A DNA stretch of 64,000 bases, from positions 1,984,001 to 2,048,000 of the forward strand of contig NZ_CP028339.1 in NCBI RefSeq assembly GCF_003030465.1. The letters are read 5' to 3'. Numbering within the stretch: the first letter of the stretch is position 1; each line of letters starts with the position of its first letter. Source of the stretch: Thauera aromatica K172 (GTDB lineage Bacteria; Pseudomonadota; Gammaproteobacteria; Burkholderiales; Rhodocyclaceae). The notes beneath the pieces were generated by a model. The model ran no database searches. It was given only the letters and a program-made list of their open reading frames with translations, and had not been told where the DNA came from. The position numbers and the translations under genes were made by a program. Below, in pieces: positions 7,369 through 21,752 of this stretch.

Positions 7369-8667
7369 ATGACAGCTCACGCCCGCGTGGTTCTGCCGAA
7401 CCGCAGCCAGATGGAGTTTCGCGCCAGCGACCTCGAGTCGCTGCTGCCGGAAGGTCATCGGGCGCGGCTGGTGTGGTCGTATGTGGCCGGGCAGGACTTG
7501 GGGCGCTTCTATGAGCGGATCCGGGTGCGTGAGGGCGGGGTTGGTCGGGCGGCGATTGCGCCGGAGATCCTGCTGTCGCTGTGGCTGTACGCGACGCTCG
7601 ACGGGGTGGGTAGCGCGCGCGAGGTGGCGCGCCTGACCGATGCGCATGATGCGTACCGTTGGTTGTGCGGCGGGGTGCAGGTCAATTACCACACGCTGTC
7701 GGACTTCCGGAAGGATCACGGCGAGGCGCTCGACGAGTTGCTCAGCGCCAATGTGGCAACGCTGATCGACGCCGGGGTGGTGAAGCTGCGCCAGGTGGCG
7801 CATGACGGCATGCGGGTGCGGGCCAGCGCGGGGGCGGGATCGTTCCGGCGCGAGGACAAGCTCGCGGGCTACCTGGAGGCGGCCCGCGAGCGGGTTGCGC
7901 AACTCAAGGCCGAGCTCGAAGCCGACCCGGGCAAGGCCGATCGGGCTCGTCAGGCGGCACGGCTGCGCGCGGCCCGTGAGCGCGAGGCCCGGGTGGCTGA
8001 GGCGCTGGCGCGCTTGCCCGAGCTCGAAGCGATCAAGCGCCGCCAAGGCAAGGCCGCCGATCAGGCGCGCGCCTCGACGACCGATGCCGAGGCGACGGTC
8101 ATGAAGATGGGCGACGGCGGGTTTCGGCCCGCCTACAACCCGCAGTTGGCCAGCGACGTCGATTCGCTGGTGATCGTGGGCGTCGAGGTGGCCACGGCGG
8201 GAAGTGATCAGGGTCAGATGGTGCCGATGATCGAGCAGGTGCGCGAGCGTTGCGGTCAGGCGCCCGAGGCCTGGCTGGTCGATGGCGGCTTCGTGGGTCA
8301 CCAGCAGGTCGAACAAGCCAGCGCGCACACCACGGTGTACGGGCCGGTGCCGGCGGCCAAGGACAAGACGGTGGATCCGCACCAGCCCAAGCCGGATGAC
8401 AGTCCTGCGGTGGCGGCGTGGCGAGCGCGCATGGGGACCGACGAGGCCAAGGCGATCTATAAGAACCGCGCCGCAACCGCCGAGTGCGTCAATGCCCAAA
8501 GCCGCAACCGGGGACTGCAGCAGTTCCGCGTGCGCGGACTGGCCAAGGTCAAGTGCGTGGTCCTGTTCTTTGCCTTGGCCCACAACCTGATGCGTATGGC
8601 CAGCCTCGCGCCGGAGATGCTCGCCCTCGGGAAAGGTGCGTCTGCAGTGACCGGAATCGGGGCTTGA
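7369..8667 (+). CDS. IS1182-family (DDE) transposase
   Basis: A 432-residue transposase. The N-terminal DUF772-type region (RIRVREGGVGRAAIAPEILL, LWLYATLDGVGSAREVARL) is followed by the catalytic core. The first Asp lies in VAHDGMRVRASAG, the second region is WLVDGGFVG, and the Glu follows in the C-terminal part (NRAATAECVNAQSRNRGLQQ). A charged coiled coil separates the first Asp from the rest. The reading frame is unbroken and the length is normal for IS1182 members (about 430-530), so it may be active. Its strand is the same as lutABC, but it has its own -10. Confidence 0.92.
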   Translation: MTAHARVVLPNRSQMEFRASDLESLLPEGHRARLVWSYVAGQDLGRFYERIRVREGGVGRAAIAPEILLSLWLYATLDGVGSAREVARLTDAHDAYRWLCGGVQVNYHTLSDFRKDHGEALDELLSANVATLIDAGVVKLRQVAHDGMRVRASAGAGSFRREDKLAGYLEAARERVAQLKAELEADPGKADRARQAARLRAAREREARVAEALARLPELEAIKRRQGKAADQARASTTDAEATVMKMGDGGFRPAYNPQLASDVDSLVIVGVEVATAGSDQGQMVPMIEQVRERCGQAPEAWLVDGGFVGHQQVEQASAHTTVYGPVPAAKDKTVDPHQPKPDDSPAVAAWRARMGTDEAKAIYKNRAATAECVNAQSRNRGLQQFRVRGLAKVKCVVLFFALAHNLMRMASLAPEMLALGKGASAVTGIGA

Positions 8668-8856: not shown

Positions 8857-11589
8857 TCATTTGGCCGCCGCTTGCGTCGTGGGTGCAGCGCTGGCGGCAG
8901 GCTGCAGGTCGAGTTCGGCGCGCACGATGCCGGACTCGCCCGAGGGGACGAAGCGGAACTCGAGGAACTGCAGCAGCTTGAGCATCGGCTCGTTTTCCGA
9001 CATCACGTCGCCGACGAAGCGGCGGATGCCGCGCTGGCGGGCGTAGTCCATCAGCTTGTTCATCAGCAGCGTGGCGAGGCGCTGGCGCTTGATGTCGGAG
9101 CGGATGACGAGGGCGAACTCGGCGGTGTCGTTGTCCGGATCGGCCACCGCGCGCGCCACGCCGAGCGTTTCCGGCTTGCCGTCGGCATCGATCGCGCTGG
9201 CGATGAAGGCCATTTCGCGGTCGTAGTCGATCTGGGTGAGGCGTGCCATTTCGCGGCGCGGAAACTTCGGGATGTAGTGGAAGAAGCGGTAGGTGAAGTC
9301 CTGCCGCGTCAGCCGCGACAGGAAGTCGTAGTGCGCCGGCTCGTCCTCGGGGCGGATCGGACGCAGCAGGATTTCGCGCCCATCGCGCAGCGCCGCTTTT
9401 TCTTCCAGCGCCTTCGGGTAGGGCTGGATGGCGAGGCGGTATTCCTGGCGCGGCTCGGCCGACAGGCGGATGTGGGCGTCGATCGCCTGCACGCCTTTTT
9501 CATCGGCGAACAGGGGGTTGATGTCGAGCTCGGCGATTTCCGGCAGGTCGACGACGATCTGCGACACCTTGGTCAGGGTCAGCGCGATCGCGTCGCGGTC
9601 GGCCGCCGGCAGATGCGGGCGCGCGTCGAGCAGGGCGGCGGCCTTGGTGCGGTCGATGAGGTCGTGGGCGAGCGGCAGGTTCAACGGCGGCAGGCCGACG
9701 CCGAGGCCGCGGTAGATTTCGAGGGCGCGGCCGCCTTCGCCGAACAGGATCAGCGGCCCGAACAAGGCGTCGGTGGTGACGCCGATGAGCAACTGCCGGG
9801 CATGGCCGCGCAGCACCATGCGCTGCACGGTAAAGCCGCCGATGGTGGCGTCGGGGTGGGTGCTGCCGACGCGCGCCAGCATGCCGTGGGCGGCGGCCTC
9901 GACCGCTTCGGCGGTTTCCAGGTTCAGCGCGATGCCGCCCACGTCCCATTTGCGGCGGATGTCGCGCGACATCACGGTGAGCGCGACCGGCAGGCCGATG
10001 CGCTCGGCGATCCGCCCGGCCTCTTCCGGGGTCGCGGCGAGGTGGGTCTGCACCACCGGGATGCCGTAGGCCTCGAGGATGGCCTTGGAGTCGGCCTCGC
10101 TCAGGCTGGTGCAGCCGGCATCGAGCGCGGCCCGGATCACGCCGCGCGCGCGGGCGACGTCGGGCCTGAACTCGACCGGTTCGGACGGCGGTACCTGGGT
10201 CAGCACTTCCGAGGCGATGCGGTGGTTGAACATGTGGAGGAAGGCGCTCGCCGCATGTTCGGGGGTATCGAAAGTGGCGATGCCGGCATCGACGAACAGG
10301 CGGCGCTCCTCGGCGACGCTTTCGTCGCCGACCCAGCAGGTCATGACGTTGCCGCCGATCTCACGCACGGTCTTGATCACGCTGTGAGCCACGTCCATGC
10401 TCTTGCTCAGGGCGTTGGGTGTGTGCATCAGCAGCACGGCGTCGCCGTCCTGCTCTTCCTGCAGCACCTTGAGCACTTCCTCGTAGCGCGAGGGGGCGGA
10501 GTCGACCTTGATCTCGACCGGATTCTGCCCGTCCCAGTCCGGCGACAGGATCCGGCGCAGGCGGGTTACGGTCTGCTCCTTCAGGGGCGGCATCATGTAG
10601 CCGCTCAGATAGAGGCTGTCCTCGACCATGACTCCGGCGCCGCCGCCGTTACTCACCGCCACCAGGCGATTGCCGCGCAGGGGGCGGGAGCGGAGCACGG
10701 TCTCGACCGCGCCGAACATTTCGTCGAGGTGATCGACGCGCAGGATGCCGGCCCGTCGCAACACGGCGTCATGGACGTCGTCGCTGCTGACGAGGTTGGG
10801 AACGTCGAGGAACAGGGGGTCGGAGACCCCGAGCAGGCGATTGTTGGGTGAGCGCCCGGCCTTGATCGCGACCACCGGCTTGTTGCGCGCGGCGGCGCGG
10901 GCCGCGGCCATGAAGCTGCGGCGCTCGTGGATCGATTCGATGTAGAGCAGGATCGCGCGGGTATCGGAGTCGCTGCCGAGAAAGTCGAGCACTTCGCCGA
11001 AACCGATGTCGAGGCCGTCGCCCAGCGACACGAAATAGGACAGGCCGACTTTCTTGCGCAAGGCCCAGTCGAGCACCATGGTACCGACCGCGTCGCGCTG
11101 CGACACGAAGGCGAGCTTGCCGGGCTGGACCTGGATCTGGGAGAAGGTCGCATTCAGCCCCAGCCCGGGCACCAGGATGCCGAGCGTGCTGCCGCCGAGC
11201 AGACGGATGCCGTGACGCCGGGTGGCTTCGAGGATCGCCACCGAGATCGGGCGGCCGTCGGCGCCGATCGTCGTCGCCAGCTGGTTGGCCATGACGATGA
11301 CCGCGCGCGTGCCGCGTCGGCCGAGCTGCTCGATCAGCTCCGGGATGACCTTGGGCGGGGTGCAGATGATCGCGAGGTCGGGCGTCTGCGGCAGGGCGGC
11401 GACGTTGGGGTAGGTGAGGACGCCGGCTACCGATTCGTACTTCGGATTAACCGGCATGATCGGGCCGGCGAAGGTGCCCGCCAGCAGGTTGCGCATCAGC
11501 ACGTTGCCCATGCGCCGGTGGCGCACGGTGGCCCCGATCACGGCGATGGAGCGCGGATTGAACAGGCTTTGGAGGTGTCGGAAACTCAT
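8857..11589 (-). CDS. Pat-like fusion: NDP-forming acyl-CoA synthetase domains plus C-terminal GNAT acetyltransferase
   Basis: A 910-residue protein. In order: CoA-binding Rossmann domain (FNPRSIAVIGATVRHRRMGN), succinyl-CoA-ligase-like domain (LVAVSNGGGAGVMVEDS), ATP-grasp domain (residues about 490-720), and a GNAT domain (last 160 residues, with FLSRLTRQDFTYRFFHYI and ENEPMLKLLQFLEF). This is the architecture of the protein lysine acetyltransferase Pat/YfiQ, which silences acyl-CoA synthetases by acetylation. An acyl-CoA synthetase activity is the alternative. The usual glycine-rich acetyl-CoA loop of GNAT is altered here (KRQRLATLLM). The ATG at 11589 starts the conserved MSFRHLQ. It lies downstream of the catabolic cluster on the same strand, where a CoA ligase would be a natural target. 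Confidence 0.88.
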   Translation of the reverse strand: MSFRHLQSLFNPRSIAVIGATVRHRRMGNVLMRNLLAGTFAGPIMPVNPKYESVAGVLTYPNVAALPQTPDLAIICTPPKVIPELIEQLGRRGTRAVIVMANQLATTIGADGRPISVAILEATRRHGIRLLGGSTLGILVPGLGLNATFSQIQVQPGKLAFVSQRDAVGTMVLDWALRKKVGLSYFVSLGDGLDIGFGEVLDFLGSDSDTRAILLYIESIHERRSFMAAARAAARNKPVVAIKAGRSPNNRLLGVSDPLFLDVPNLVSSDDVHDAVLRRAGILRVDHLDEMFGAVETVLRSRPLRGNRLVAVSNGGGAGVMVEDSLYLSGYMMPPLKEQTVTRLRRILSPDWDGQNPVEIKVDSAPSRYEEVLKVLQEEQDGDAVLLMHTPNALSKSMDVAHSVIKTVREIGGNVMTCWVGDESVAEERRLFVDAGIATFDTPEHAASAFLHMFNHRIASEVLTQVPPSEPVEFRPDVARARGVIRAALDAGCTSLSEADSKAILEAYGIPVVQTHLAATPEEAGRIAERIGLPVALTVMSRDIRRKWDVGGIALNLETAEAVEAAAHGMLARVGSTHPDATIGGFTVQRMVLRGHARQLLIGVTTDALFGPLILFGEGGRALEIYRGLGVGLPPLNLPLAHDLIDRTKAAALLDARPHLPAADRDAIALTLTKVSQIVVDLPEIAELDINPLFADEKGVQAIDAHIRLSAEPRQEYRLAIQPYPKALEEKAALRDGREILLRPIRPEDEPAHYDFLSRLTRQDFTYRFFHYIPKFPRREMARLTQIDYDREMAFIASAIDADGKPETLGVARAVADPDNDTAEFALVIRSDIKRQRLATLLMNKLMDYARQRGIRRFVGDVMSENEPMLKLLQFLEFRFVPSGESGIVRAELDLQPAASAAPTTQAAAK

Positions 11590-11734
11590 GACCCGCGACC
11601 GAGAATTCAGATGAAATACCAGTGTAATGCACTGGGCGGCATCTGTAAGCATCCCGGGGAGGGGAGCTTGTCCGGTGGCGTGCGCGGGCCGTGGGGCACG
11701 GCGGCGCGGGGCCGCCGTGTGCCTGCGGGGAGTT

Positions 11735-12190
11735 TCAGGCCTGCTGGGCTTCGAGCAGATCGACGCCGTCGGCGGCGAGGAAGCGGCGCAACCGTTCGCG
11801 CAGCGCCGGCGGAATGGTGATGCCGTGCAGGCCGTCGAGTCCGGCGACCACGCGGACCAGGATGGCGCGCATGCGCACCTGTTCGCCGACCCGGCCTTCG
11901 ACCCTGATCGTGAACGACTTGTTACCGAGGCGGGTGACGAGCAGGCTCAGGCACAGAATGTCGCCGATCTTGCTGGGGGCGATGAAGTCGACCTCGATAC
12001 GTGCGGCGGGGACGCCGATGCGATCGTTCATGTGGAGATCGGCAAAGCTCGTGCCCATGCCTTCGATGAACCAGTCCTCGACCAGCTCGTCGATGATGAC
12101 CAGGTATTCGGGGTAAAAGACGATGCCGGCGGGGTCGCAGTGATGGAAGCGGATCAGGTGATTTTTTTCGAACGCGGTGTTGGGGTGCAT
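11735..12190 (-). CDS. 4-hydroxybenzoyl-CoA thioesterase-family hotdog protein
   Basis: A 151-residue single hotdog-fold thioesterase. The motif HHCDPAGIVFYPEYL near residue 17 carries the Asp used by Pseudomonas-type 4-hydroxybenzoyl-CoA thioesterases, so a hydrolase acting on an aromatic or alicyclic acyl-CoA is likely. In aromatic-CoA clusters such enzymes recycle CoA from dead-end thioesters. It lies 137 bp downstream of the TRAP binding protein gene, beyond a probable terminator, and 145 bp upstream of the ACS/GNAT gene. The ribosome site is weak. YbgC-like enzymes are the alternative; the CDPAGIV motif favours the 4-HBT subgroup. Confidence 0.85.
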   Translation of the reverse strand: MHPNTAFEKNHLIRFHHCDPAGIVFYPEYLVIIDELVEDWFIEGMGTSFADLHMNDRIGVPAARIEVDFIAPSKIGDILCLSLLVTRLGNKSFTIRVEGRVGEQVRMRAILVRVVAGLDGLHGITIPPALRERLRRFLAADGVDLLEAQQA

Positions 12191-12225
12191 TGGAAGAGTC
12201 TTGTTGTGGTTGGCGGGAGAGGAGA

Positions 12226-12271
12226 AAAAAGGGGGGAGAAAAGGGGCGACCCCGGGCTACGGGGCCGCCCC
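12226..12271 (-). terminator. Rho-independent terminator after the TRAP binding-protein gene
   Basis: On the minus strand, a GC-rich hairpin (arms GGGGCG and CGCCCC at 12243-12271, with an inner CCCG/CGGG stem) is followed by TTTTC, a C-run and TTTTTT. It lies between dctP-like (12328) and the thioesterase gene (start 12190), so it would reduce read-through into the latter. Confidence 0.65.
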
Positions 12272-12327
12272 GCCGGCATCGCCGCGCGGGCTTATGCCGG
12301 CACTGCCGAGGCCGCTGTGCGCAGCGC

Positions 12328-13362
12328 TTATTGTGCCCGGTGTTTTTCGACCAGCTTGCGTGCTTCGTCCAGCATGGCCTGGCCTGGATAGCCCTTGGCC
12401 GTTACTTCTGTCACCCATTCGGCCGCAATCTTATCGCCGATTCCGCGCCACTTGCTGGTTTCGGATGCGGGAATGGTGTTGAACTGGTTGCCGTTCCTGA
12501 TCGCCACTTCGCGCGAGGGCGCGGCCGAATCGTCCCACGCACGGCCCAGGCGGGCGGAAAGCTCGATCCCCGAGTTGGCGTCGATGACCTGTTTCAGATC
12601 GGCCGGCAGGCTGTCGTACTTGGCCTTGTTCATCGCCACCACGAATACTGCCGAGTACAGTGCCGGTTCGGTTGCAGCCGTTTCGGAATGATAGCGGGTC
12701 AGTTCGTGCAGCTTCATCGATGGCACGATTTCCCATGGCAGCAGGTAGCCGTCGATGACGCCTTTGGAGACTGCCTCCACCACTGCCGGCATCGGCATGC
12801 CGACCGGTGAGGCGCCCATCTCGGCCAGCATCTTGTTGGTCAGACGGGTCGGCGCGCGCATCTTCAGGCCTTTGAAATCCTCCATCGTCTGGATCGGCCG
12901 CTTGCTGTTGTGGGCCTGTCCATTGTCATGGACATGGAAGGCCAGCGGCTTGACCTGGGCAAAGTCCTTTTGCCCATATTTTTCATAGTATTCCCACAGC
13001 GCCCGGCTGGTTGTTTCCGCCTTGTGGGACATGAAGGGCAGCTCGAACACTTCGACCGAGGGGAAGCGGCCCGAGTTGTAGCCCGGCAGGGTCCAGCCGA
13101 TGTCGGCAATGCCGTCGACGACTTGCTGGAACACCTGGGTCGGGGTGCCGCCGATCTGCATCGCCGGGTAGATCTGGCACTTCATGCGGTTGTTCGACTC
13201 GGCTGCGATCTTGTCGCACCAGGGCACCAGCTGCTGATGTCCGAGTGCCGTGGTCGGCCACATGTGCGACACCTTCAGGATGACTTCCTGGGCCGTCGCC
13301 GCCGTCGTGAATAGCGCTGCTGCTGTGGTGACCAGCACTGCGCTCAGGTGCTTTCCTCTCAT
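12328..13362 (-). CDS. TRAP-type (DctP-family) periplasmic solute-binding protein, orphan
   Basis: A 344-residue secreted protein. The signal peptide (MRGKHLSAVLVTTAAALFTT, cleavage near TATA-QEV) is followed by a DctP fold: VILKVSHMWPTTALGHQ at the N-terminus and the hinge region KGLKMRAPTRLTNKMLAEMG with the conserved Arg for a carboxylate ligand. TRAP transporters import organic acids with an Na+ or H+ gradient and need DctQ and DctM membrane subunits. Neither is present in this window. Its place in the CoA cluster suggests an aromatic or alicyclic carboxylate ligand (inference). GAGGAGA lies about 9 bp before the ATG, which decides the start. A terminator follows. Confidence 0.9.
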   Translation of the reverse strand: MRGKHLSAVLVTTAAALFTTAATAQEVILKVSHMWPTTALGHQQLVPWCDKIAAESNNRMKCQIYPAMQIGGTPTQVFQQVVDGIADIGWTLPGYNSGRFPSVEVFELPFMSHKAETTSRALWEYYEKYGQKDFAQVKPLAFHVHDNGQAHNSKRPIQTMEDFKGLKMRAPTRLTNKMLAEMGASPVGMPMPAVVEAVSKGVIDGYLLPWEIVPSMKLHELTRYHSETAATEPALYSAVFVVAMNKAKYDSLPADLKQVIDANSGIELSARLGRAWDDSAAPSREVAIRNGNQFNTIPASETSKWRGIGDKIAAEWVTEVTAKGYPGQAMLDEARKLVEKHRAQ

Positions 13363-13508
13363 GCTTCGCTTCTCCTCACATGCGCCACTTGGTGTGATGC
13401 AGGACGGGTTCCCGTGGCTGTGACCCGCCCTGAAATGACCGGCTTTCTGACCGGCATTTTTGTTCCGATGGTACAGCAATGCAGCGTCAGGATCGGCGCG
13501 AACGAGGC

Positions 13509-14279
13509 TCAGCCGCCGCGGAACACAGGGGGGCGTTTTTCCAGGAAGGCGCGCATGCCTTCTTTCTGGTCCGCGCTTGCGAACAGCAGCTGGAAAGCCT
13601 TGCGCTCGAGCATCAGGGCGGTGTCGAGCGAGGCATCCTGACCGGCAAGGAGGACCTCCTTGATCTGGGCGATGGCAAGCGGTGGCAGGGTGGCGATGTG
13701 GCGGGCCAGTTCGAGGGCACGCGCCTGGACCGCGTCATCGGCCACCACTTCGCTGGCCAGGCCCATCGCCAGGGCTTCGCGCGCGCTCACCGGGAGGCCG
13801 GTGAGGACCATTTTCATCGCCTGGAACTTGCCCACGGCGCGAGTCAGGCGCTGGGTGCCGCCGGCGCCAGGCATGATGCCGACCTTGACTTCGGGCTGGC
13901 AGAAACTCGCGCCTTCTCCGGCGATGATGATGTCGGCGTGCATTGCGAGTTCGCAGCCGCCGCCCCAGGCATAGCCGTTGACCGCGGCGATGACCGGTTT
14001 CGGACAGGCTGCGATCGCCTGCCACAGGCGCTGGGTCTGGCGCAGCATGATCTCGATCGCACCGGCGTCGGCCATTGCGCGGATGTCGGCGCCGGCGGCG
14101 AAGCAGCGCTCGCCGCCGGTGAGGACGATGCAGCGTACTTCGGCCGCCTGGCCGAGACGGTCGAAGTGCTCGGCCAGTGCGCTGCGGACTTCCTGGTTGA
14201 GGGCGTTGCGGGCGTCGGGGCGGTTCAGGCGGACGACGGCGACATCGGGTGTCGGCTGCTCGACCAGTACTACGCTCAT
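13509..14279 (-). CDS. Enoyl-CoA hydratase (crotonase family), canonical active site
   Basis: A 256-residue crotonase. Both catalytic glutamates are present: GGGCELAMHAD and QPEVKVGIMPGAGGTQRL. The oxyanion-hole segment is CFAAGADIRAMAD. It should hydrate a 2-enoyl-CoA to a 3-hydroxyacyl-CoA. It resembles PaaF and BadK-type hydratases of aromatic pathways. It lies downstream of the CoA ligase gene but is separated from it by a probable terminator, so it may have its own promoter. The dctP-like gene follows after 146 bp. The physiological substrate is not known. Confidence 0.9.
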   Translation of the reverse strand: MSVVLVEQPTPDVAVVRLNRPDARNALNQEVRSALAEHFDRLGQAAEVRCIVLTGGERCFAAGADIRAMADAGAIEIMLRQTQRLWQAIAACPKPVIAAVNGYAWGGGCELAMHADIIIAGEGASFCQPEVKVGIMPGAGGTQRLTRAVGKFQAMKMVLTGLPVSAREALAMGLASEVVADDAVQARALELARHIATLPPLAIAQIKEVLLAGQDASLDTALMLERKAFQLLFASADQKEGMRAFLEKRPPVFRGG

Positions 14280-14303
14280 GAGGGACTCCTGAAGCAGGAT
14301 AGG

Positions 14304-14336
14304 GCGAAAAACCGGCAGACGTGAATCAATCTGCCG
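14304..14336 (-). terminator. Rho-independent terminator after the CoA ligase gene
   Basis: Minus strand: a 7-bp perfect stem (CGGCAGA/TCTGCCG, 14313-14336) with a 10-nt loop is followed by GGTTTTTCGC. It sits between the ligase stop (14362) and the hydratase start (14279) and marks the probable end of the five-gene transcript. Confidence 0.7.
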
Positions 14337-14361
14337 CGCACGGGGATTGCTTCACCCTTGT

Positions 14362-15933
14362 TCAGAGGGTCGCCTGCAGCATGTCGCGCAGCCGATATTT
14401 CTGCACCTTGCCGGTGGCCGTGCGTGGTAGCTCTTCGAGGAACTGGATCGTGCGCGGACACTTGTAGATCGACAGCGTGCCGCGCAGGGTCGTCATCACC
14501 GCTTCGCTCAGCTTCTGCTGGCTCGCCGACGGATCCTCGGGGACGATGAACAGGGTCAGCCGGGTCAGACCGTCGTCGTTGGGAACGGCGACCACCACGG
14601 CTTCGGCAATGCCCGGCACGGCCGATGCGCAGCTTTCGATTTCCCCCGGGCTGACCCATTGGCCGGAAATCTTGAGCATGTCGTCGGCACGACCGTTGTG
14701 GTACCAGAAGCCGTCGGCATCGAAGCTGAACATGTCGCCCGGGTAGTACCAGCCATCGCGGAGGGCTTTTTCGGTGGTCTCGGGCAGCTTCCAGTAGCCG
14801 ACGAATTGCGATGCCATGCGGATGGCGATCAGGCCCGGCGTGTCGGGGGTGGTGATCTCGTTGCCCAGCTCGTCGAGCAAGCGGACTTCCGCCCAGGGGA
14901 CGCGCTTGCCGCAGGAGCCGATCCGGTACGCGTCGGGGCGGGCGCACAGGAACAGGAACACGGTTTCCGAGGCGCCGATGCCTTCGGTGATGGGGATGCC
15001 GAAGGTGTCGAGCCATTGCTGGCCGATATTCTCCGGCAGTTTTTCCCCGGCCGAGACGAAGTGGCGGATGTCGCGCATGGCTGCCGATTCGCCCGCACCC
15101 TCGCGCAGCAGGTTGCGGTACATCACCGGGGTGCTGAACAGGATCGTCGGCCGGTGGCGCGCGGCCGTGGCCATGACGCGCTCGGCGTCGGGCCATCCGG
15201 GGGCGACGATGACGGTGGCGCCGCACTGCAGGCCGCCCATCAGGGAATGGCCGAGCGACCAGCCGAAGAACATCTTCGAGGTGGTGAATACCCGGTCCCC
15301 GGGCTTGATGCCAAAATACTCGCGTTCCAGGCGGTCGGCGATCAGCACCGAACGATGGGCGTGCATGACCGCTTTCGGGCGCCCGGTGGTGCCGGACGAA
15401 TACAGCCAGTAGGCGACATCGTCCGGCGCGACCTGAACGGACTCCAGGGTGGCGGCCTGGCCATCGAGGAAGTGCTTGAAGGCGATGATGGCCGGAGCGG
15501 GGGCTTCGTCGCCGCGGACGACGACCTGCGGCGGCTGCTCGAGCTCGCCGGCGATCTGCTGGTATAGGTGGAGGAACTCAGCGTCGATATAGAGCAGACG
15601 GCAGGCGCTGTCCTGGATCACATAGAGGACGTCGCGCGGGGCGAGGCGTACGTTGAGGGCGACCGCGACCGCGCCGATGCGCAGCGTGCCCAGATAGGCC
15701 GCGACCAGTTCGGGAGAGTCGTCCATCAGGAAGAGGACGCGATCGCCCTTGCCGACGCCATGGGCCCGGAGGGCGTTGCCGTGACGGTTGGTTGCGGCAT
15801 CGAGCTCGCGGTAGGTGATCGAGCGCTCTGCGCACAGCATCGCGGTTTGTTCGCCGAGGCCCTGCGCCAGGGGACGGCCGATGATCTCGTCGGCGGCGTT
15901 CATGCTTTGTTGCGGCTGCAGTTGTTCAGACAT
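14362..15933 (-). CDS. Benzoate-CoA-ligase-family aryl/alicyclic acid CoA synthetase
   Basis: A 523-residue AMP-forming acyl-CoA synthetase (ANL superfamily). The ATP-binding P-loop YSSGTTGRPKAVMHAH, the ADSP region (DGWYYPGDMF) and the C-terminal catalytic Lys (PRTATGKVQKY) are intact. Length and motif wording place it with benzoate-, hydroxybenzoate- and 2-aminobenzoate-CoA ligases. It would activate an aromatic or alicyclic acid with ATP and CoA, the entry step of the cluster. It looks close to what I recall of the Thauera 3-hydroxybenzoate-CoA ligase, but I could not compare sequences. GGAG lies 9 bp before the ATG. A terminator follows. Confidence 0.9.
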   Translation of the reverse strand: MSEQLQPQQSMNAADEIIGRPLAQGLGEQTAMLCAERSITYRELDAATNRHGNALRAHGVGKGDRVLFLMDDSPELVAAYLGTLRIGAVAVALNVRLAPRDVLYVIQDSACRLLYIDAEFLHLYQQIAGELEQPPQVVVRGDEAPAPAIIAFKHFLDGQAATLESVQVAPDDVAYWLYSSGTTGRPKAVMHAHRSVLIADRLEREYFGIKPGDRVFTTSKMFFGWSLGHSLMGGLQCGATVIVAPGWPDAERVMATAARHRPTILFSTPVMYRNLLREGAGESAAMRDIRHFVSAGEKLPENIGQQWLDTFGIPITEGIGASETVFLFLCARPDAYRIGSCGKRVPWAEVRLLDELGNEITTPDTPGLIAIRMASQFVGYWKLPETTEKALRDGWYYPGDMFSFDADGFWYHNGRADDMLKISGQWVSPGEIESCASAVPGIAEAVVVAVPNDDGLTRLTLFIVPEDPSASQQKLSEAVMTTLRGTLSIYKCPRTIQFLEELPRTATGKVQKYRLRDMLQATL

Positions 15934-16093
15934 CGTGCTTGCTCCGAATCGCGGTAAATCGCCCCGCTGGGGCGGATGGGGCGGCATAGGGAACCGGGCG
16001 TGCAGTTGACGCTAGGGCACGATCGGGTCCGCTGGCCGGCACCGATGATCCGACCGGGCTGCTCGCTTCGGCGGGCAGGCCCGGCAGGCCTGC

Positions 16094-17260
<1,167 letters not shown>

Positions 17261-17324
17261 TGCACGCTCCACTTGCTTGTTGAGTCATCGGCCGCATTTA
17301 ATGCGGACGGTATATCCGGTCAGG

Positions 17325-18107
17325 TCACATCATTTCGCCGCCGGCGACCGAGATCGACTGGCCGGTGATCGCCTCCGAGCCCGGCAGGCACAGCCAGAGG
17401 ACCGCGTTGGCGACTTCCTGGGGCCGGACCAGGCGGCCCTGGGGGTTGAAGCGGGTCAGTTCGGCCAGCGCTTCGGCCTCGCTGCGCCCGGTCTTGGTCT
17501 GAATGTTCGAGACCGAGTCGCGGACGATGTCGGTGTCGGTGTAGCCGGGGCAGACGGCATTGACGGTAACGTTCTTCCGCGCCGTCTCCAGGGCCAGGGC
17601 CCGGGTCAGGCCGATCACGCCGTGTTTGGCGGCACAGTAGGCACTGACGTAAGGGTAGCCTTTCTGTCCTGCGGTGCTGGTGATGTTGATCACGCGCCCC
17701 CAGCCGGCGGCGAGCATTCCGGGCAGAACGGCCCGGGTGCCGAGAAAGACGCCGGTGAGGTTGACGTCGAGCATCTGCTGCCAGAGTGCGGGGTCGGTCT
17801 TGACGAACGGCGCACTGAGCGCCTGGCCGGCATTGTTGACCAGGATGTCGACCGGGCCGAGGCGTGCCTGCGCTGCGGCAAAGGCGGCTGCGACCGAATC
17901 GGCCTGGGCGACGTCGACGGCTTCGCAGTGCACCTGGCTGAATGCACGCAGCTCCTCTGCCTGCTGTTCCAGCCGGGGAAGGGTTCGCCCCATCAGGGTG
18001 ACGGCGGCGCCCTGTTCCGCCAGGCTGTGGGCGATGGCCGCACCGATACCGCGGCCGCCACCGGTGATCACCGCATGTTTTCCGGAAAGTGCACGACTAT
18101 GCGTCAT
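17325..18107 (-). CDS. Short-chain dehydrogenase (3-hydroxyacyl-CoA dehydrogenase type)
   Basis: A 260-residue classical SDR. It has the nucleotide-binding GGGRGIG near residue 17, the NNAG motif, and the catalytic Ser/Tyr/Lys set (NITSTAGQKGYPYVSAYCAAK). The C-terminal AITGQSISVAGGEMM is the standard SDR ending. In this operon it would oxidise a hydroxyacyl-CoA to the ketoacyl-CoA. The C-terminal loop (SNIQTKTGRSEAEALAELTR) resembles 3-hydroxybutyrate-dehydrogenase-like SDRs. Cofactor: no basic residue follows the first glycine loop strand in a decisive place, though GRT could favour NADP. Confidence 0.88.
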   Translation of the reverse strand: MTHSRALSGKHAVITGGGRGIGAAIAHSLAEQGAAVTLMGRTLPRLEQQAEELRAFSQVHCEAVDVAQADSVAAAFAAAQARLGPVDILVNNAGQALSAPFVKTDPALWQQMLDVNLTGVFLGTRAVLPGMLAAGWGRVINITSTAGQKGYPYVSAYCAAKHGVIGLTRALALETARKNVTVNAVCPGYTDTDIVRDSVSNIQTKTGRSEAEALAELTRFNPQGRLVRPQEVANAVLWLCLPGSEAITGQSISVAGGEMM

Positions 18108-18141
18108 CGGCAGGAGTCCTTGGCAGGGTTGGAGGGCGGCA

Positions 18142-18169
18142 GGCGGGCGCAGTACAGGAGGCGCCCGCC
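18142..18169. other. Strong GC hairpin in the intergenic gap of the catabolic operon
   Basis: A perfect 9-bp inverted repeat, GGCGGGCGC and GCGCCCGCC, with a 10-nt loop in the 72-bp gap between the divergent crotonase gene and the second SDR gene. No U-run follows on either strand, so it is more likely an mRNA-stability or processing element than a terminator. Confidence 0.45.
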
Positions 18170-18179
18170 GTGCCTGGCT

Positions 18180-18998
18180 TCAGTTGCCTTCGAAAACCGG
18201 CTTCTGCTTGGCCACGAAGGCGTTGTAGGCGCGGGTGAAATCCTGCGTCTGCATGCAGATGGCCTGGGCTTCAGCTTCCGTTTCCAGCGCCTGTTCGATG
18301 CTCATGTCCCATTCCTGGTGCAGGCACTTCTTGGTCATGGCGTGGGCGAAGGCCGGGCCGTTGGCCAGCGACAGGGCCATTTCCTGGGCCTTGGCGAGGA
18401 CCTGGTCGGGTGCGACGAGGTCGTTGAAATAGCCCCAGGCCTGGCCTTCCTGGGCGCTCATGACGCGGCCGGTGTAGAGCAGCTCGGAGGCGCGGCCATG
18501 GCCGATGATGCGCGGCAGGATCGCGCACGCACCCATGTCGCAGCCGGCGAGGCCGACGCGCACGAACAGGAACGCGGTCTTGGCGTCGGGAGTGGCGTAG
18601 CGCATGTCGGAGGCCATCGACACGATCGCGCCGGCGCCGGCGCAGATGCCGTCGATGGCGGAGATGATCGGCTGCGGGCAGGTGCGCATTTCCTTCACCA
18701 GATTGCCGGTCATGCGGGTGAAGGTGAGCAGCCCGTTCATGTCCATCTTGGTGAGCGGGCCGATGATGTCGTGCACATCGCCGCCGGAGCAGAAGTTGCC
18801 GCCGGCGCCGGTGATGACGATCGAGCGCACGTCATCGACGTACTGGAATTTGTGGAAGGTGTCGCGCAGTTCGGCATAGCTTTCGAACGTGAGCGGATTC
18901 TTGCGGTCGGGGCGGTTCAGGGTGATGGTGGCGACGCGGTTGGCGACTTCGAGCTTGAAGTGTTCGGGATGCCAGTCGGCGGCTTTCAGCTTGTACAT
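18180..18998 (-). CDS. Divergent crotonase-family protein lacking both hydratase glutamates
   Basis: A 272-residue crotonase-fold enzyme. The oxyanion-hole segment [14 protein letters not shown] is present. At the first catalytic position the usual GGG-x-E is replaced by [11 protein letters not shown], and at the second the PE motif is replaced by [19 protein letters not shown]. An Asp in GCDMGA is a possible replacement. Simple hydration is therefore doubtful. Hydrolytic C-C cleavage, as in BadI/MenB-like members, or isomerisation are alternatives. The wording resembles the crotonase of 2-aminobenzoyl-CoA clusters (recollection). GGAG precedes the ATG. It is the second gene of the operon, 48 bp after the BadH-like SDR. 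Confidence 0.85.
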
Positions 18999-19046
18999 TG
19001 CAGTCTCCGGGATGTGATTCGGGTTGATCGTGTTCGGACCGCGGTC

Positions 19047-19796
19047 TCAGCCGACCATGGTCATGCCGCCGCTGACGCTCAGCACCTGGCCGGTGATGAA
19101 GTCGGAGTCGCTGCTGGCGAAGAACAGCACGGCATCGGCGATTTCGGACGGCTTGCCGAGGCGGCGCATCGGGGTCGCCTTGACGAAGGCTTCCTGGTGC
19201 TTTTCAGGCACGGCGGCGAGCAGCGGAGTGTCGGTGGGGCCGGGGCAGACGCTGTTGACGTTGATCTTGTAGCGCGCCATCTCGCGGGCCAGCGCCTTGC
19301 CGAAGGCGATCGCACCGCCCTTGGCGCCCGAATACACCGTTTCGCCCGTGCTGCCGACGCGGCCGGCATCGCTCGCCACGGTGATGACCTTGCCGCCCCG
19401 GCCGCGGGCGATCATGCCGCCCAGGAAGGCGTGGGTGACGGCGACCGGTCCGAGCAGGTTGAGATCGATGACCTTGCGCCAGAAATCGGGACTGTTTTCC
19501 ATGAAGGGCTGGATCTTCCCCCAGCCGGCGACGTTGACCACGATGTCGACTTCAAGGCCGTTCTCTTCCACCGCCTTGGCGAACACCCCGACCGAGTCGA
19601 GGCTGGTGACGTCGAGCGGGAAATAGTCGGCCTTGCGCCCGCTTTCACGGATGGCTGCAGCCACGGCGGCGCCTTTTTCCTGGTCGAGGTCGCCGATCAC
19701 TACGTGTGCTCCGGCCGCAGCCAGCGTTTCTGCCGTTGCCCGACCGATACCGGACGCGCCGCCGGTGACAACTGCCGTTTTGCCCTCAAGTCGCAT
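19047..19796 (-). CDS. SDR oxidoreductase similar to BadH (2-hydroxycyclohexanecarboxyl-CoA dehydrogenase)
   Basis: A 249-residue SDR and the first gene of the minus-strand catabolic operon. It has the nucleotide loop GGASGIG, NVAGWGKIQPF, and the catalytic Ser/Tyr/Lys in SDAGRVGSTGETVYSGAK. The stretches SDAGRVGSTGE, VCPGPTDTPLL and FITGQVLSVSGG closely match what I recall of Rhodopseudomonas BadH, which oxidises 2-hydroxycyclohexanecarboxyl-CoA. A ring hydroxyacyl-CoA substrate is therefore likely. GGAGG 8 bp upstream fixes the ATG at 19796; in-frame sequence further upstream runs into the promoter and operator. Confidence 0.88.
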   Translation of the reverse strand: MRLEGKTAVVTGGASGIGRATAETLAAAGAHVVIGDLDQEKGAAVAAAIRESGRKADYFPLDVTSLDSVGVFAKAVEENGLEVDIVVNVAGWGKIQPFMENSPDFWRKVIDLNLLGPVAVTHAFLGGMIARGRGGKVITVASDAGRVGSTGETVYSGAKGGAIAFGKALAREMARYKINVNSVCPGPTDTPLLAAVPEKHQEAFVKATPMRRLGKPSEIADAVLFFASSDSDFITGQVLSVSGGMTMVG

Positions 19797-19911
19797 TTGT
19801 TCGAACCTCCGGATTGGGATCATAGATTTCGCCGGACGAGCGCTGCGCCGCTTTGCGCTCGATCGGTGTGCTTGCGGGTGCCGTTGAATAACGGGACGGC
19901 ACCGCATGTGA

Positions 19912-19925
19912 TGAATGATCATTCA
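19912..19925. promoter_or_regulatory. Probable TetR operator, perfect 14-bp palindrome (site 1)
   Basis: TGAATGATCATTCA is a perfect palindrome. With four flanking bases (GTCA) it recurs at 20047 with one mismatch. It overlaps the predicted -10 of the minus-strand operon, so binding would repress. The TetR gene at 21066 is the obvious candidate ligand-responsive repressor (inference). Confidence 0.7.
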
Positions 19926-19943
19926 GTCAGATTTCGAAGTCAA
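19915..19943 (-). promoter_or_regulatory. Candidate promoter of the minus-strand catabolic operon
   Basis: Minus strand: -35 TTGACT (19943-19938), 17-bp spacer, and -10 GATCAT (19920-19915), giving a leader of about 110 nt before the BadH-like gene. The -10 is embedded in operator site 1. The -10 is weak, which suits a tightly regulated promoter. The 352-bp gap 19797-20148 otherwise holds only this promoter, the two operator sites and the promoter of the plus-strand crotonase gene. Confidence 0.45.
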
Positions 19944-20046
19944 GGAAATTTTGAGCGGCCCTGGAGTGCCGGTATTTCTGTTGTTAATAAAAGGCTTTGA
20001 TCGTTGGTGTGCTTGATTTTCGAGTTCCGGCATGCGACTCTTCGGA

Positions 20047-20060
20047 TGAATGATCAATCA
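20047..20060. promoter_or_regulatory. Probable TetR operator, near-perfect palindrome (site 2)
   Basis: TGAATGATCAATCA, followed by GTCA as at site 1, gives 17 of 18 identical bases between the two sites. It lies 89 bp before the plus-strand crotonase start and 135 bp from site 1, close to 13 helical turns, so both could lie on one DNA face and be bridged. Confidence 0.65.
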
Positions 20061-20148
20061 GTCATTGCGGCCCAGGCGGACATATGGCCTGGGGTATGCG
20101 CAGATGAGCTGGATCTCCCCACTCAACCCAACGAAACGAAAGGAAGCC

Positions 20149-20907
20149 ATGATTTCCCTGAATATCGATGGAGCGGTTGCCACCGCCACGCTGTGCCGCC
20201 CCCCGGTCAATGCCATCAACGACGAATGGCTGGATCGCTTCAATGAAATCCTGGACTGTGTCGAAGCCAATGACGAGGTCGGAGTGCTGTGGATTCGCAG
20301 CAATCAGCGTGTTTTCTGCGCCGGGGCCGATCTCGAACTGATCCGGACACTTTTTTCGACCGAAGCGGGGCGGGCGCAGATGATTGCCAGCACGCGGCGC
20401 ATGCAGGAGGCTTTTGCGCGGCTCGAACGTTTGCCGAAAGTGTCGGTCGCCGAGATCGGCGGCGCTGCGATGGGCGGTGGTTTCGAACTCGCGCTGGCCT
20501 GCGACCTGCGCCTGGTCGCCGAGGAGGCCAGCGTCGGCCTTCCCGAAGCACGGCTCGGGCTGCTCCCCGCCGCCGGTGGAACCCAGCGCATGACCCGGAT
20601 CTGCGGTGAAGCGGTGTCCCGCCGCCTGATCCTGGGGGCGGAACTGATCAGCGGTGCGCAGGCGGTGACCCTCGGCTGTGCCCATCGCAGCGCGCCGGCG
20701 GCCGAACTCGAGCGTCTCGCCCGCGAGCAGGTCGCCCGCCTCGCGGAATTGCCGGCGCAGGCGCTGGCGGCCTGCAAGCACTGCATCTTCGCTGCGCTCG
20801 ACGGTACGGTGGACGGTTACGAAGTCGAGCTCGAGGGCAGCGCCGCCTTGCTCGCCGCGCCGGATACCCAGGCGAGGGTGCAGCAGTTCCTCGCCCGGCA
20901 GAAATGA
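20149..20907 (+). CDS. Enoyl-CoA hydratase/isomerase family protein (third crotonase)
   Basis: A 252-residue crotonase with both glutamates in place (GGGFELALACD and LPEARLGLLPAAGGTQRM) and the oxyanion-hole segment FCAGADLELI. It should act as an enoyl-CoA hydratase. The ATG at 20149 follows AAAGGAAG by about 6 bp; an in-frame ATG at 20050 overlaps operator site 2 and is rejected. It is transcribed divergently from the main catabolic operon and stands 158 bp before the TetR gene, probably in one transcript, so it is likely under the same control. Confidence 0.88.
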   Translation: MISLNIDGAVATATLCRPPVNAINDEWLDRFNEILDCVEANDEVGVLWIRSNQRVFCAGADLELIRTLFSTEAGRAQMIASTRRMQEAFARLERLPKVSVAEIGGAAMGGGFELALACDLRLVAEEASVGLPEARLGLLPAAGGTQRMTRICGEAVSRRLILGAELISGAQAVTLGCAHRSAPAAELERLAREQVARLAELPAQALAACKHCIFAALDGTVDGYEVELEGSAALLAAPDTQARVQQFLARQK

Positions 20908-21065
20908 TTCGTGCCGCCCGTCCCGCCTTGTCGGGGGAGGAGTGGATCCAGGACAATGCACGCCGCCTCGGGTGAGGTACAGGGCCGCCGACCTGCAGTG
21001 GTCCGCGGCCTGCCGGCTGCGCAGCCCTTGCAGGACGGACAAAAGTGTCAATAGGAAGAACGACG

Positions 21066-21752
21066 ATGAGTGCAGCGGGAGAGGTGAAGAGTGTGGTGTC
21101 CGACCCCAGGTTGGTCGAGGAGCGCAGGCGGCAGATCATCCTCGCGGCGGTCGAGCTGTTTTCCGAGGAGGGCTACCACACGACCACGATCCAGCAGATC
21201 GCACGCAAGGCCGGTACCAGCACAGGCTTGATTTACCAGTATTTCGGCGACAAGGAAGATGTGCTCTTCCTGACGCTCAAGCTGGTCATCGATTCCTACG
21301 AGAATGAGATCCCGCCGCACCTGGAAGGGGTGTCCCATCCCGTGGAGCGGCTGTGCAAGGCCTTGGCGGCGTACTGCAGCATCGTCGACCGGCTGCGCGA
21401 CGCCACGGTGCTGGCCTACCGTTCCACCATGTCGCTGCGCGCCGAGCGCCGGAGCCTGATCAAGGATGGGGAAACGCGCACCAATCAGCTGATCGAAGGG
21501 TGCGTGCGCGCGTGCACCAGCGCCGGCTTCATGCGCCCGGTCAACGAGCACCTGCTGGCCTATCAGTACGTGATGTTCGCCCACTCGTGGGCGCTCAAGC
21601 ACTGGTCTTACCGGAACCGCTACACCTTGGAAGAATATGTCGCGGAGGGCACCCAGCTTCTGGTGGAACCTTTCCTGACCGCCAAGGGCCACCTGGTGCT
21701 GGCCAGCCTGCGCGCCGCGGAAGAGTCTGCGGCCAGTCCGCCGGTGTGCTGA
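21066..21752 (+). CDS. TetR/AcrR-family transcriptional regulator
   Basis: A 228-residue repressor. The N-terminal helix-turn-helix is textbook TetR (RQIILAAVELFSEEG, then IARKAGTSTGLIYQYFGDKE). The ligand domain has the KstR2/FadR-like features common among acyl-CoA-responsive TetR proteins (AYRSTMSLRAERR, FAHSWALKHW). AGGAAG before the ATG at 21066 decides the start over a GTG at 21045. It likely binds the paired palindromes at 19912 and 20047 and is released by an acyl-CoA of the pathway. Both the target and the ligand are inference from position. Confidence 0.88.
   Translation: MSAAGEVKSVVSDPRLVEERRRQIILAAVELFSEEGYHTTTIQQIARKAGTSTGLIYQYFGDKEDVLFLTLKLVIDSYENEIPPHLEGVSHPVERLCKALAAYCSIVDRLRDATVLAYRSTMSLRAERRSLIKDGETRTNQLIEGCVRACTSAGFMRPVNEHLLAYQYVMFAHSWALKHWSYRNRYTLEEYVAEGTQLLVEPFLTAKGHLVLASLRAAEESAASPPVC

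What the first reader, a model, noticed from the sequence alone, without database searches (positions are those of the whole stretch)
8857..21752. CoA-dependent catabolic module resembling aromatic-acid clusters, but with no ring-attacking enzyme
Seen: a CoA ligase of the benzoate type, an acyl-CoA dehydrogenase, two SDRs (one BadH-like), three crotonases, a hotdog thioesterase, a TRAP binding protein and a TetR regulator in 13 kb. Known: similar sets accompany 2-aminobenzoyl-CoA monooxygenase clusters in Azoarcus, cyclohexanecarboxylate (Bad/Ali) pathways, and the Thauera 3-hydroxybenzoate genes. Here neither a flavin monooxygenase/reductase nor a benzoyl-CoA reductase is present. Inference: this is a peripheral module for a hydroxylated or alicyclic acid whose ring is reduced by an enzyme encoded elsewhere, or which enters already saturated.
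Basis: partly seen in the sequence, partly recalled or inferred. Interest (0 to 1): 0.75.

Follow-up and report, generated by a model that had tools for sequence, protein, structure and literature searches.

The report
Thauera 3-hydroxybenzoate (hbd) gene cluster
This looks like the known set of genes with which denitrifying bacteria break down 3-hydroxybenzoate without oxygen; the enzyme that attacks the ring is not missing but lies elsewhere on the same chromosome, with the genes for benzoate breakdown.

Summary
The ten genes are real and correctly recognised, but the interval starts one gene too early. The ligase (14362-15987, -) passes the curated cut-off for 3-hydroxybenzoate-CoA ligase HbdA (1069 bits, cut-off 1000). 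The genome holds one class I benzoyl-CoA reductase, BcrCBAD, about 0.6 Mb away, so 'no ring-attacking enzyme' is true only of the cluster. The ferredoxin beside it is identical over 80 of 80 residues to PDB 1rgv (Thauera aromatica, recalled), so this may be the organism of the 2001 paper on anaerobic 3-hydroxybenzoate metabolism. The 931-aa synthetase at 8857-11652 is a chromosomal neighbour; the hbd segment (about 11.7-21.75 kb) lies between it and ubiG, a place without hbd genes in other genomes of the genus. Two things I did not find in the papers searched: 18 of 21 non-Thauera hbd loci carry bzd-type reductase subunits in the locus, none of three Thauera loci does; and a palindrome TGAnTGAnnnnTCAnTCA stands before hbd transcription units, in 11 loci also before reductase genes, as likely operator of the TetR regulator. 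Verdict: a known pathway with an outsourced reductase.

The parts
11735..12190 (-). Hotdog (4HBT) thioesterase, inside the inserted segment; with hbd seen only here and in G067 (L076)
   Evidence: Pfam 4HBT 1.1e-10; 94% in L076, no hit in L042 or L005
12328..13479 (-). TRAP transporter binding protein DctP, without dctQ/dctM beside it
   Evidence: PF03480 6.7e-48; dctM lies in 13 of 21 non-Thauera hbd loci; DctM matches of this genome are all outside the window
13509..14279 (-). Crotonase Ech1 with both hydratase glutamates (residue roles recalled); next to hbdA only in the Thauera loci
14362..15987 (-). HbdA, 3-hydroxybenzoate-CoA ligase; likely start at 15933 (523 aa, 57.5 kDa)
   Evidence: NF053567.1 1069.2 bits, cut-off 1000; length and mass
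16094..17272 (-). Acyl-CoA dehydrogenase, substrate not settled by families
   Evidence: PF00441, PF02770, PF02771; all 21 NCBIfam hits below cut-off
17325..18107 (-). Short-chain dehydrogenase SDR1 (Ser-Tyr-Lys present)
   Evidence: PF00106 1.8e-64; alignment
18180..18998 (-). Crotonase Ech2, PRK08258 family, lacks both hydratase glutamates; candidate ring-processing isomerase or hydrolase
   Evidence: NF006107.0 491.5 bits, cut-off 330; 98% in T. phenylacetica; alignment
19047..19922 (-). Short-chain dehydrogenase SDR2, nearest to BadH but below its cut-off; likely start at 19796
   Evidence: TIGR03206 264 bits, cut-off 431; sequence
19912..19929 (.). Candidate TetR operator 1 (TGAATGATCATTCAGTCA), overlapping the second hexamer of a promoter-like site for the operon that starts with SDR2
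   Evidence: promoter-like site 19943-19915 (-), 1 found against 0.4 in shuffles
20047..20064 (.). Candidate TetR operator 2 (TGAATGATCAATCAGTCA), before the crotonase-tetR pair
20050..20907 (+). Crotonase Ech3 with both hydratase glutamates; likely start at 20149
   Evidence: NF005803 1.5e-45, below cut-off
21045..21752 (+). TetR-family regulator, presumed local repressor
   Evidence: PF00440 3.4e-17; a relative in 19 of 21 non-Thauera hbd loci, the other two (L011, L019) cut by contig ends

Best explanation
This is the hbd cluster for anaerobic degradation of 3-hydroxybenzoate in a Thauera (perhaps T. aromatica). 3-Hydroxybenzoate, taken up with the help of the TRAP binding protein, is activated by HbdA to 3-hydroxybenzoyl-CoA. 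The ring is then reduced by the ordinary ATP-dependent class I benzoyl-CoA reductase BcrCBAD, encoded about 0.6 Mb away, to a 3-hydroxy-dienoyl-CoA. The cluster's crotonases, two SDRs and acyl-CoA dehydrogenase carry this hydroxylated alicyclic thioester through hydration, oxidation and ring opening to an open-chain product at the level of 3-hydroxypimeloyl-CoA. The divergent tetR product represses both operons through palindromes TGAnTGAnnnnTCAnTCA and is probably relieved by a pathway CoA ester. Shown by sequence: gene families, one BCR in the genome, conservation of the palindrome, place of insertion. Inferred: that Bcr acts on this substrate here, order of steps after reduction, which crotonase opens the ring, repression and inducer.
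For: HbdA over the curated equivalog cut-off; the T. aromatica 3-hydroxybenzoate:CoA ligase is reported as a 60-kDa monomer of narrow specificity (PMC8388817, passages), here 57.5 kDa. BcrC, B, A, D, Had and Oah all above NCBIfam cut-offs, no second reductase set. Gene order as reported for T. aromatica, had-oah-dch-bcrCBAD-fdx (PMC6449761, passages; here dch was assigned by place and crotonase similarity only). Ferredoxin 80 of 80 identical to 1rgv. The core genes recur in 21 non-Thauera hbd loci, in 18 with BCR subunits in the same locus and in 11 with the palindrome before a BCR subunit gene. In the genus HbdA is over cut-off in 3 of 29 genomes and BcrD in 5 of 29, the 3 being among the 5. 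Route in Aromatoleum: reductive dearomatisation to 3-hydroxydienoyl-CoA, then 3-hydroxypimeloyl-CoA, TRAP uptake under anoxia (PMC9765128, passages).
Against: No activity, growth or expression data for this strain. The genome also holds a PRK08255-type salicylyl/2-aminobenzoyl-CoA monooxygenase and BoxB, so ring attack with oxygen is not excluded. Ech2 belongs to a family (PRK08258) that I recall from 2-aminobenzoate clusters too. HbdA identity to named Aromatoleum species is only 68-70%, to T. phenylacetica 76%. Three of 28 genomes searched have no BcrD-family match, two of them (G047, G049) with an HbdA locus, though both are small bins and the G049 locus has a BzdO-type gene. The paper on the T. 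aromatica cluster is not held, so no letter-by-letter comparison was made.
Confidence: 0.9

Rival explanations
1. The module belongs to a hybrid aerobic route: the ligase makes 2-aminobenzoyl-CoA or salicylyl-CoA, which the PRK08255-type flavin monooxygenase/reductase encoded at C1:2746954-2749323 attacks, and the cluster processes the product.
For: The monooxygenase is in the genome, 1356 bits against a cut-off of 1078, with no benzoate-type ligase found in the 18 kb around it; the best solved relative of the ligase is an anthranilate-CoA ligase (4wv3); Ech2 is over the PRK08258 cut-off.
Against: Ligase is over the HbdA equivalog cut-off; no palindrome with up to one mismatch lies near the monooxygenase; the same core genes lie with bzd-type BCR subunits in 18 of 21 other loci; T. 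aromatica's benzoate-CoA ligase is reported to be broad and to take 2-aminobenzoate (PMC8388817, passages).
Confidence: 0.05
2. A Bad/Ali-type cyclohexanecarboxylate pathway in which an already saturated acid enters and no ring reduction is needed.
For: CoA ligase, acyl-CoA dehydrogenase, hydratases, BadH-nearest SDR and crotonase in one cluster.
Against: BadH 264 bits (cut-off 431), TIGR03207 175 bits (cut-off 575), NF043006 233 (cut-off 650). The published pathway has a MarR-type BadR (PMC9795900, passages); here TetR with another palindrome.
Confidence: 0.02
3. An mbd-type cluster for 3-methylbenzoate or a 3-halobenzoate rather than 3-hydroxybenzoate.
For: Also a meta-substituted benzoate and a TetR-type repressor (PMC4424350, passages).
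Against: The MbdR operator ATACN10GTAT occurs 0 times in the window (only 0.01 expected by chance) while another palindrome is conserved; mbd has an ABC transporter and its own reductase (recalled), neither is here; the ligase model is HbdA.
Confidence: 0.03

Closest known systems
3-hydroxybenzoate gene cluster of Thauera aromatica (Laempe et al. 2001, J Bacteriol 183:968; not held; content recalled, reference seen)
   Same: 3-hydroxybenzoate-CoA ligase beside SDR and crotonase genes, reduction by the common benzoyl-CoA reductase (recalled); perhaps the same locus
   Different: not compared, as neither the paper nor its sequence was at hand
Aromatoleum and other Rhodocyclales hbd loci (A. aromaticum 'HbcL', 'BcrADB'C'', PMC2907700, table passage; loci L006-L025, L030)
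   Same: hbdA, acyl-CoA dehydrogenase, SDR2, Ech2, Ech3, tetR and the palindrome
   Different: 18 of 21 carry bzd-type BCR subunits in the locus and 13 of 21 carry dctM; the window has neither, and has a further crotonase, Ech1, next to hbdA
bad/ali cyclohexanecarboxylate cluster
   Same: enzyme classes
   Different: models below cut-off, other regulator type
mbd 3-methylbenzoate cluster of Azoarcus sp. CIB
   Same: TetR-type repressor, meta-substituted benzoate
   Different: operator and transporter, own reductase (recalled)
abm 2-aminobenzoyl-CoA cluster of A. evansii (content recalled)
   Same: aryl-CoA ligase and PRK08258-type crotonase
   Different: no monooxygenase in this cluster; one is encoded about 0.74 Mb away

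Membership tests
hbd 3-hydroxybenzoate cluster | 3-hydroxybenzoate-CoA ligase (HbdA equivalog) | tested here: met
   NF053567.1 1069.2 bits, cut-off 1000
hbd 3-hydroxybenzoate cluster | conserved partners: acyl-CoA dehydrogenase, SDR2, Ech2, Ech3, tetR | tested here: met
   all five present; of 21 non-Thauera loci acdh 21, sdr2 21, ech2 20, ech3 19, tetR 19, the misses (L011, L019) at contig ends; in L011 acdh and sdr2 are pieces
hbd 3-hydroxybenzoate cluster | a class I benzoyl-CoA reductase available in the genome | tested here: met
   BcrC, B, A, D over cut-offs, one set
hbd 3-hydroxybenzoate cluster | reductase subunits inside the locus (as in other genera) | tested here: not met
   none in the window, L076 or L005/L042; EbN1-type linkage is not needed for the pathway
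hbd 3-hydroxybenzoate cluster | induction by and growth on 3-hydroxybenzoate without oxygen | not testable with these tools
   needs culture
bad/ali cyclohexanecarboxylate | BadH and AliB over model cut-offs | tested here: not met
   264 of 431 and 175 of 575 bits
abm 2-aminobenzoate | monooxygenase/reductase in the cluster | tested here: not met
   PF00724 has 4 matches in the genome, none in the window; the PRK08255-type one is at C1:2746954-2749323
mbd 3-methylbenzoate | MbdR operator ATACN10GTAT | tested here: not met
   0 matches in the window

The most novel reading that the evidence does not exclude
The hbd core is a reductase-independent cassette: the same ligase, crotonases, SDR and TetR regulator work with locally encoded, co-regulated bzd-type reductase subunits in Aromatoleum and other Rhodocyclales, but in Thauera the cassette lacks reductase and dctQM genes and borrows a bcr-type reductase outside its regulon. 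One repressor recognising TGAnTGAnnnnTCAnTCA would hold the parts together, perhaps including the distant dctPQM at C1:1.160-1.164 Mb, whose two promoter regions carry one-mismatch copies. Whether Thauera lost these genes or the others gained them was not tested.
Probability: 0.5. Interest if true: 0.45.

Novelty: already known. Interest (0 to 1): 0.33.

Why it matters
It removes an apparent gap: no unknown ring-attacking enzyme needs to be sought. It offers a testable regulon (a short palindrome and its TetR protein) for anaerobic 3-hydroxybenzoate breakdown, and shows one catabolic gene set beside two different types of benzoyl-CoA reductase, which bears on how anaerobic aromatic pathways are put together and placed in chromosomes.

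Tried and rejected
Rejected: the 931-aa synthetase as a member of the module. Rejected: a second benzoyl-CoA reductase in the genome (PF01869 two hits, PF06050 two hits, all in the bcr operon). Rejected: reductase copies next to hbd as one separate old clade. In a tree of 34 BcrA/BzdQ-type rows (33 different) the 9 hbd-linked rows need 5 changes, not 1, and several sit beside the other bzd-type copy of the same genome; in Aromatoleum they look like recent duplicates (inference). In that tree only rows on the hbdA contig near hbdA were labelled as linked; L061, L064 and L066 come from other contigs of their bins and were labelled 'other', and L021 and L065 are the same sequence.

Not conclusive: the HbdA scan of relatives gives matches in 41 of 41 genomes because the model also hits general ligases; only rows over the cut-off were used. 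The TetR protein had no NCBIfam match at E 1e-60 or better, a strict limit. The search of solved structures with SDR2 at E 1e-45 gave nothing, also a strict limit. The exact palindrome at C1:887163 lies at the start of an Amidase_2 gene and the one-mismatch site at 1319279 at the start of a crotonase gene; neither fits the regulon clearly. Background for the palindrome (54 loci, 329,671 bases: 2 exact, 6 with up to one mismatch) was not clean, as some of those stretches overlap hbd-linked reductase genes. The promoter-like site is within what shuffles give (1 against a mean of 0.4). The loci are related, so conservation among them is not independent evidence.

Papers: the 2001 T. aromatica paper is not held. 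A description of this palindrome or of an HbdR protein was not seen in the listings, nor in the passages of the papers opened; the library lacks most subscription journals.
Full report
OBSERVATION. Pfam gives clear families for nine (thioesterase, DctP, two crotonases, benzoate-type ligase, acyl-CoA dehydrogenase, two SDRs, TetR protein); the third crotonase was scanned with NCBIfam only (E 1.5e-45, below that model's cut-off). Eight of the ten lie on the minus strand with short gaps; Ech3 and tetR run divergently.

IDENTITY OF THE SUBSTRATE. The ligase passes the curated cut-off of the equivalog model for 3-hydroxybenzoate-CoA ligase HbdA (1069.2 bits, cut-off 1000) and that of the benzoate-CoA ligase family (404, cut-off 375). 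The nearest named relatives by tblastn are Thauera phenylacetica (76%) and Aromatoleum species (68-70%). A review gives the T. aromatica 3-hydroxybenzoate:CoA ligase as a 60-kDa monomer from anaerobic cells, acting on 3- and 4-hydroxybenzoate, with very narrow specificity (PMC8388817, passages); the window protein from its likely start is 523 aa and 57.5 kDa.

WHERE THE RING IS ATTACKED. The window's genome (G000, 3.71 Mb, two contigs) has two PF01869 matches and two PF06050 matches, all in one operon at C1:1.376-1.384 Mb. Their NCBIfam matches are BcrC 838 (cut-off 421), BcrB 947 (487), BcrA 934 (578), BcrD 569 (313), with Had 677 (339) and Oah 740 (464) beside them; dch between them was assigned by place and crotonase similarity, not by a model. 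The order had-oah-dch-bcrCBAD-fdx is that reported for T. aromatica (PMC6449761, passages). The ferredoxin beside them matches PDB 1rgv at 80 of 80 residues; that 1rgv is from T. aromatica is recalled. In G067, the other genome with the same insertion, the ferredoxin is 98% identical to that of G000. So the genome may be T. aromatica, but no call names it. BoxB and a PRK08255-type monooxygenase are also encoded, away from the window.

[quoted passage not shown] For Aromatoleum the published route is reductive dearomatisation to 3-hydroxydienoyl-CoA and on to 3-hydroxypimeloyl-CoA, with TRAP-type uptake under anoxia (PMC9765128, passages).

COMPARISON OF LOCI. 26 loci came from one scan. Four (L026-L029) are distant (27-45%) and show no acdh, ech2, ech3 or tetR hit; they were left out of the counts, though L026, from a gammaproteobacterial bin, has its 45% ligase 4 kb from bcr-type genes. 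Of the remaining 22, one is T. phenylacetica (L005; the same contig was read again as L042) and 21 are other Rhodocyclales or betaproteobacteria. In the 21: acdh in 21, sdr2 in 21, ech2 in 20, ech3 in 19, tetR in 19, sdr1 in 17 (absent from L012, L013, L018, L024), dctM in 13, and benzoyl-CoA reductase subunits in 18. The three without a reductase gene (L009, L011, L019) are cut by contig ends. These subunits were found by tblastn with the proteins of L021 and L044; only those of L021 were scanned with models: BzdN 824 bits (cut-off 454), BzdO 931 (cut-off 449), while its activase subunit is over the general activase cut-off only. Five loci (L012, L013, L014, L018, L024) show only a BzdO-type gene. 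None of the three Thauera loci (window, L076, L005/L042) has a reductase gene. 'BcrADB'C'' for 3-hydroxybenzoate in A. aromaticum is already in print (PMC2907700, table passage), so special subunits there are not new; the contrast with Thauera is what this comparison adds.

Of 28 genomes (the 26 behind those loci, G000 and G024) 25 have some TIGR02261 (BcrD) match, but only 4 are over its cut-off (G000, G024, G041, G062), as this model is made for the bcr type; G024 and G041 look like one genome. The three without a match are G047, G049 and G064, the first two with an HbdA locus (L011, L013). In the genus, HbdA is over cut-off in 3 of 29 genomes (G000, G024, G067) and BcrD in 5 of 29; the three are among the five. 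A tree of the BcrA/BzdQ-type subunit does not put the hbd-linked copies in one clade (5 changes): in Aromatoleum they are close to other bzd-type copies, while the Thauera enzyme is of the other type.

REGULATION. A palindrome TGAnTGAnnnnTCAnTCA occurs twice in the window, at 19912-19929 and 20047-20064, exact, both in the divergent promoter region; 100 shuffles gave a mean of 0.05 matches with one mismatch allowed and none reached 2. In the whole genome there are three exact places (these two and 887163) and three with one mismatch; the reversed pattern gives none. In 23 hbd loci (L005-L025, L030, L076) 79 sites with at most one mismatch were found, none lying 30 bases or more inside a matched gene, and 21 of 23 loci have an exact site (L022 and L023 have none). 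They stand before sdr2, sdr1, hbdA, dctP, dctQ, ech2, ech3 or tetR and, in 11 loci, before a reductase subunit gene; three sites (L010:18589, L019:80, L020:15789) have no assigned gene. In 54 other loci (329,671 bases) there were 2 exact and 6 with up to one mismatch, against 48 and 87 in 27 hbd-query loci (498,147 bases, L026-L029 included). Operator 1 overlaps the second hexamer of a promoter-like site TTGACT-17-GATCAT, as for a repressor, though such a site is within chance. No palindrome lies in the 30 kb read around the bcr operon even with two mismatches, so in this genome the reductase is outside the presumed regulon.

TRANSPORT. DctP in the window has no DctQ/DctM beside it. The two one-mismatch palindromes at 1160057 and 1164433 lie before a dctP-dctQ-dctM set and before a divergent dctP (dctM 58%, dctQ 40% to those of the hbd locus L007). 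In T. phenylacetica a dctM-dctQ-dctP set lies near hbd tetR (L042). This suggests that the distant set serves the orphan DctP; it is inference.

BOUNDARY AND ORIGIN. In G008 and G020 the order is lutC, synthetase, ubiG, ompA without hbd genes; in G024 synthetase, ubiG, ompA; in G009, G017 and G006 lutC, ubiG, ompA. In the window and in G067 the hbd segment lies between synthetase and ubiG. So the module is about 11.7-21.75 kb and was most simply inserted there as a block; in T. phenylacetica it sits at another place. A transposase gene (7369-8667) stands between lutC and the synthetase in the window but not in G067.

MECHANISM AFTER REDUCTION. Ech1 and Ech3 keep the two glutamates of hydratases; Ech2 lacks both and has an aspartate where dienoyl isomerase-type crotonases have one (alignment; residue roles recalled). 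I take Ech2 (81-100% identical in the 22 hbd loci where it was found, L005-L025, L030 and L076 without L011) as the enzyme of a special ring step, and Ech1 and Ech3 as hydratases. By formula, a 3-hydroxydienoyl-CoA is an isomer of 6-oxocyclohexenecarbonyl-CoA, so reaching 3-hydroxypimeloyl-CoA needs two waters and no net oxidation; the SDRs and the acyl-CoA dehydrogenase must then balance each other or act later. This is my own reckoning and not tested.

VERDICT. A known pathway, perhaps even the known locus; the apparent absence of a ring-attacking enzyme is explained by BcrCBAD elsewhere. The added details are the corrected boundary, the contrast in reductase linkage and the candidate operator.

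Noticed in passing
8857-11652 (-): 931-aa ADP-forming acyl-CoA synthetase with a C-terminal GNAT domain, next to ubiG in three other genomes of the genus without hbd genes at that place.
   Followed up: yes
7369-8667 (+): Transposase (DUF772, DDE_Tnp_1_6) between lutC and the synthetase, absent at this place in G067.
   Followed up: partly
G000:C1:1160057 and 1164433 (L087:7057, 11433): One-mismatch copies of the hbd palindrome before a dctPQM TRAP set and a divergent dctP far from the window.
   Followed up: partly
G000:C1:2746954-2749323 (L090:8954-11323): PRK08255-type salicylyl/2-aminobenzoyl-CoA monooxygenase-reductase (1356 bits, cut-off 1078) with no benzoate-type ligase found within the 18 kb read.
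   Followed up: partly
G000:C2 (L039): Second contig of 53.8 kb; its first 20 kb match plasmid records with trb and trfA genes at about 100% (AM261282).
   Followed up: no
L078 (G067:C1:3676001-3692000): A second benzoyl-CoA reductase-like set in G067 with dch, oah and had relatives at 61-66% and a benzoate-type ligase, perhaps for another substituted benzoate.
   Followed up: no
L026:9620-19165: Gammaproteobacterial bin with a 45% HbdA-like ligase 4 kb from fdx (62%) and bcrDAB genes (71-83%) like those of the window's genome.
   Followed up: no
L025:3245-3741: In Aromatoleum buckelii the hbd-linked BzdQ-type gene matches only in pieces and no BzdP-type gene was seen, while the BzdN/BzdO-type genes remain.
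   Followed up: no
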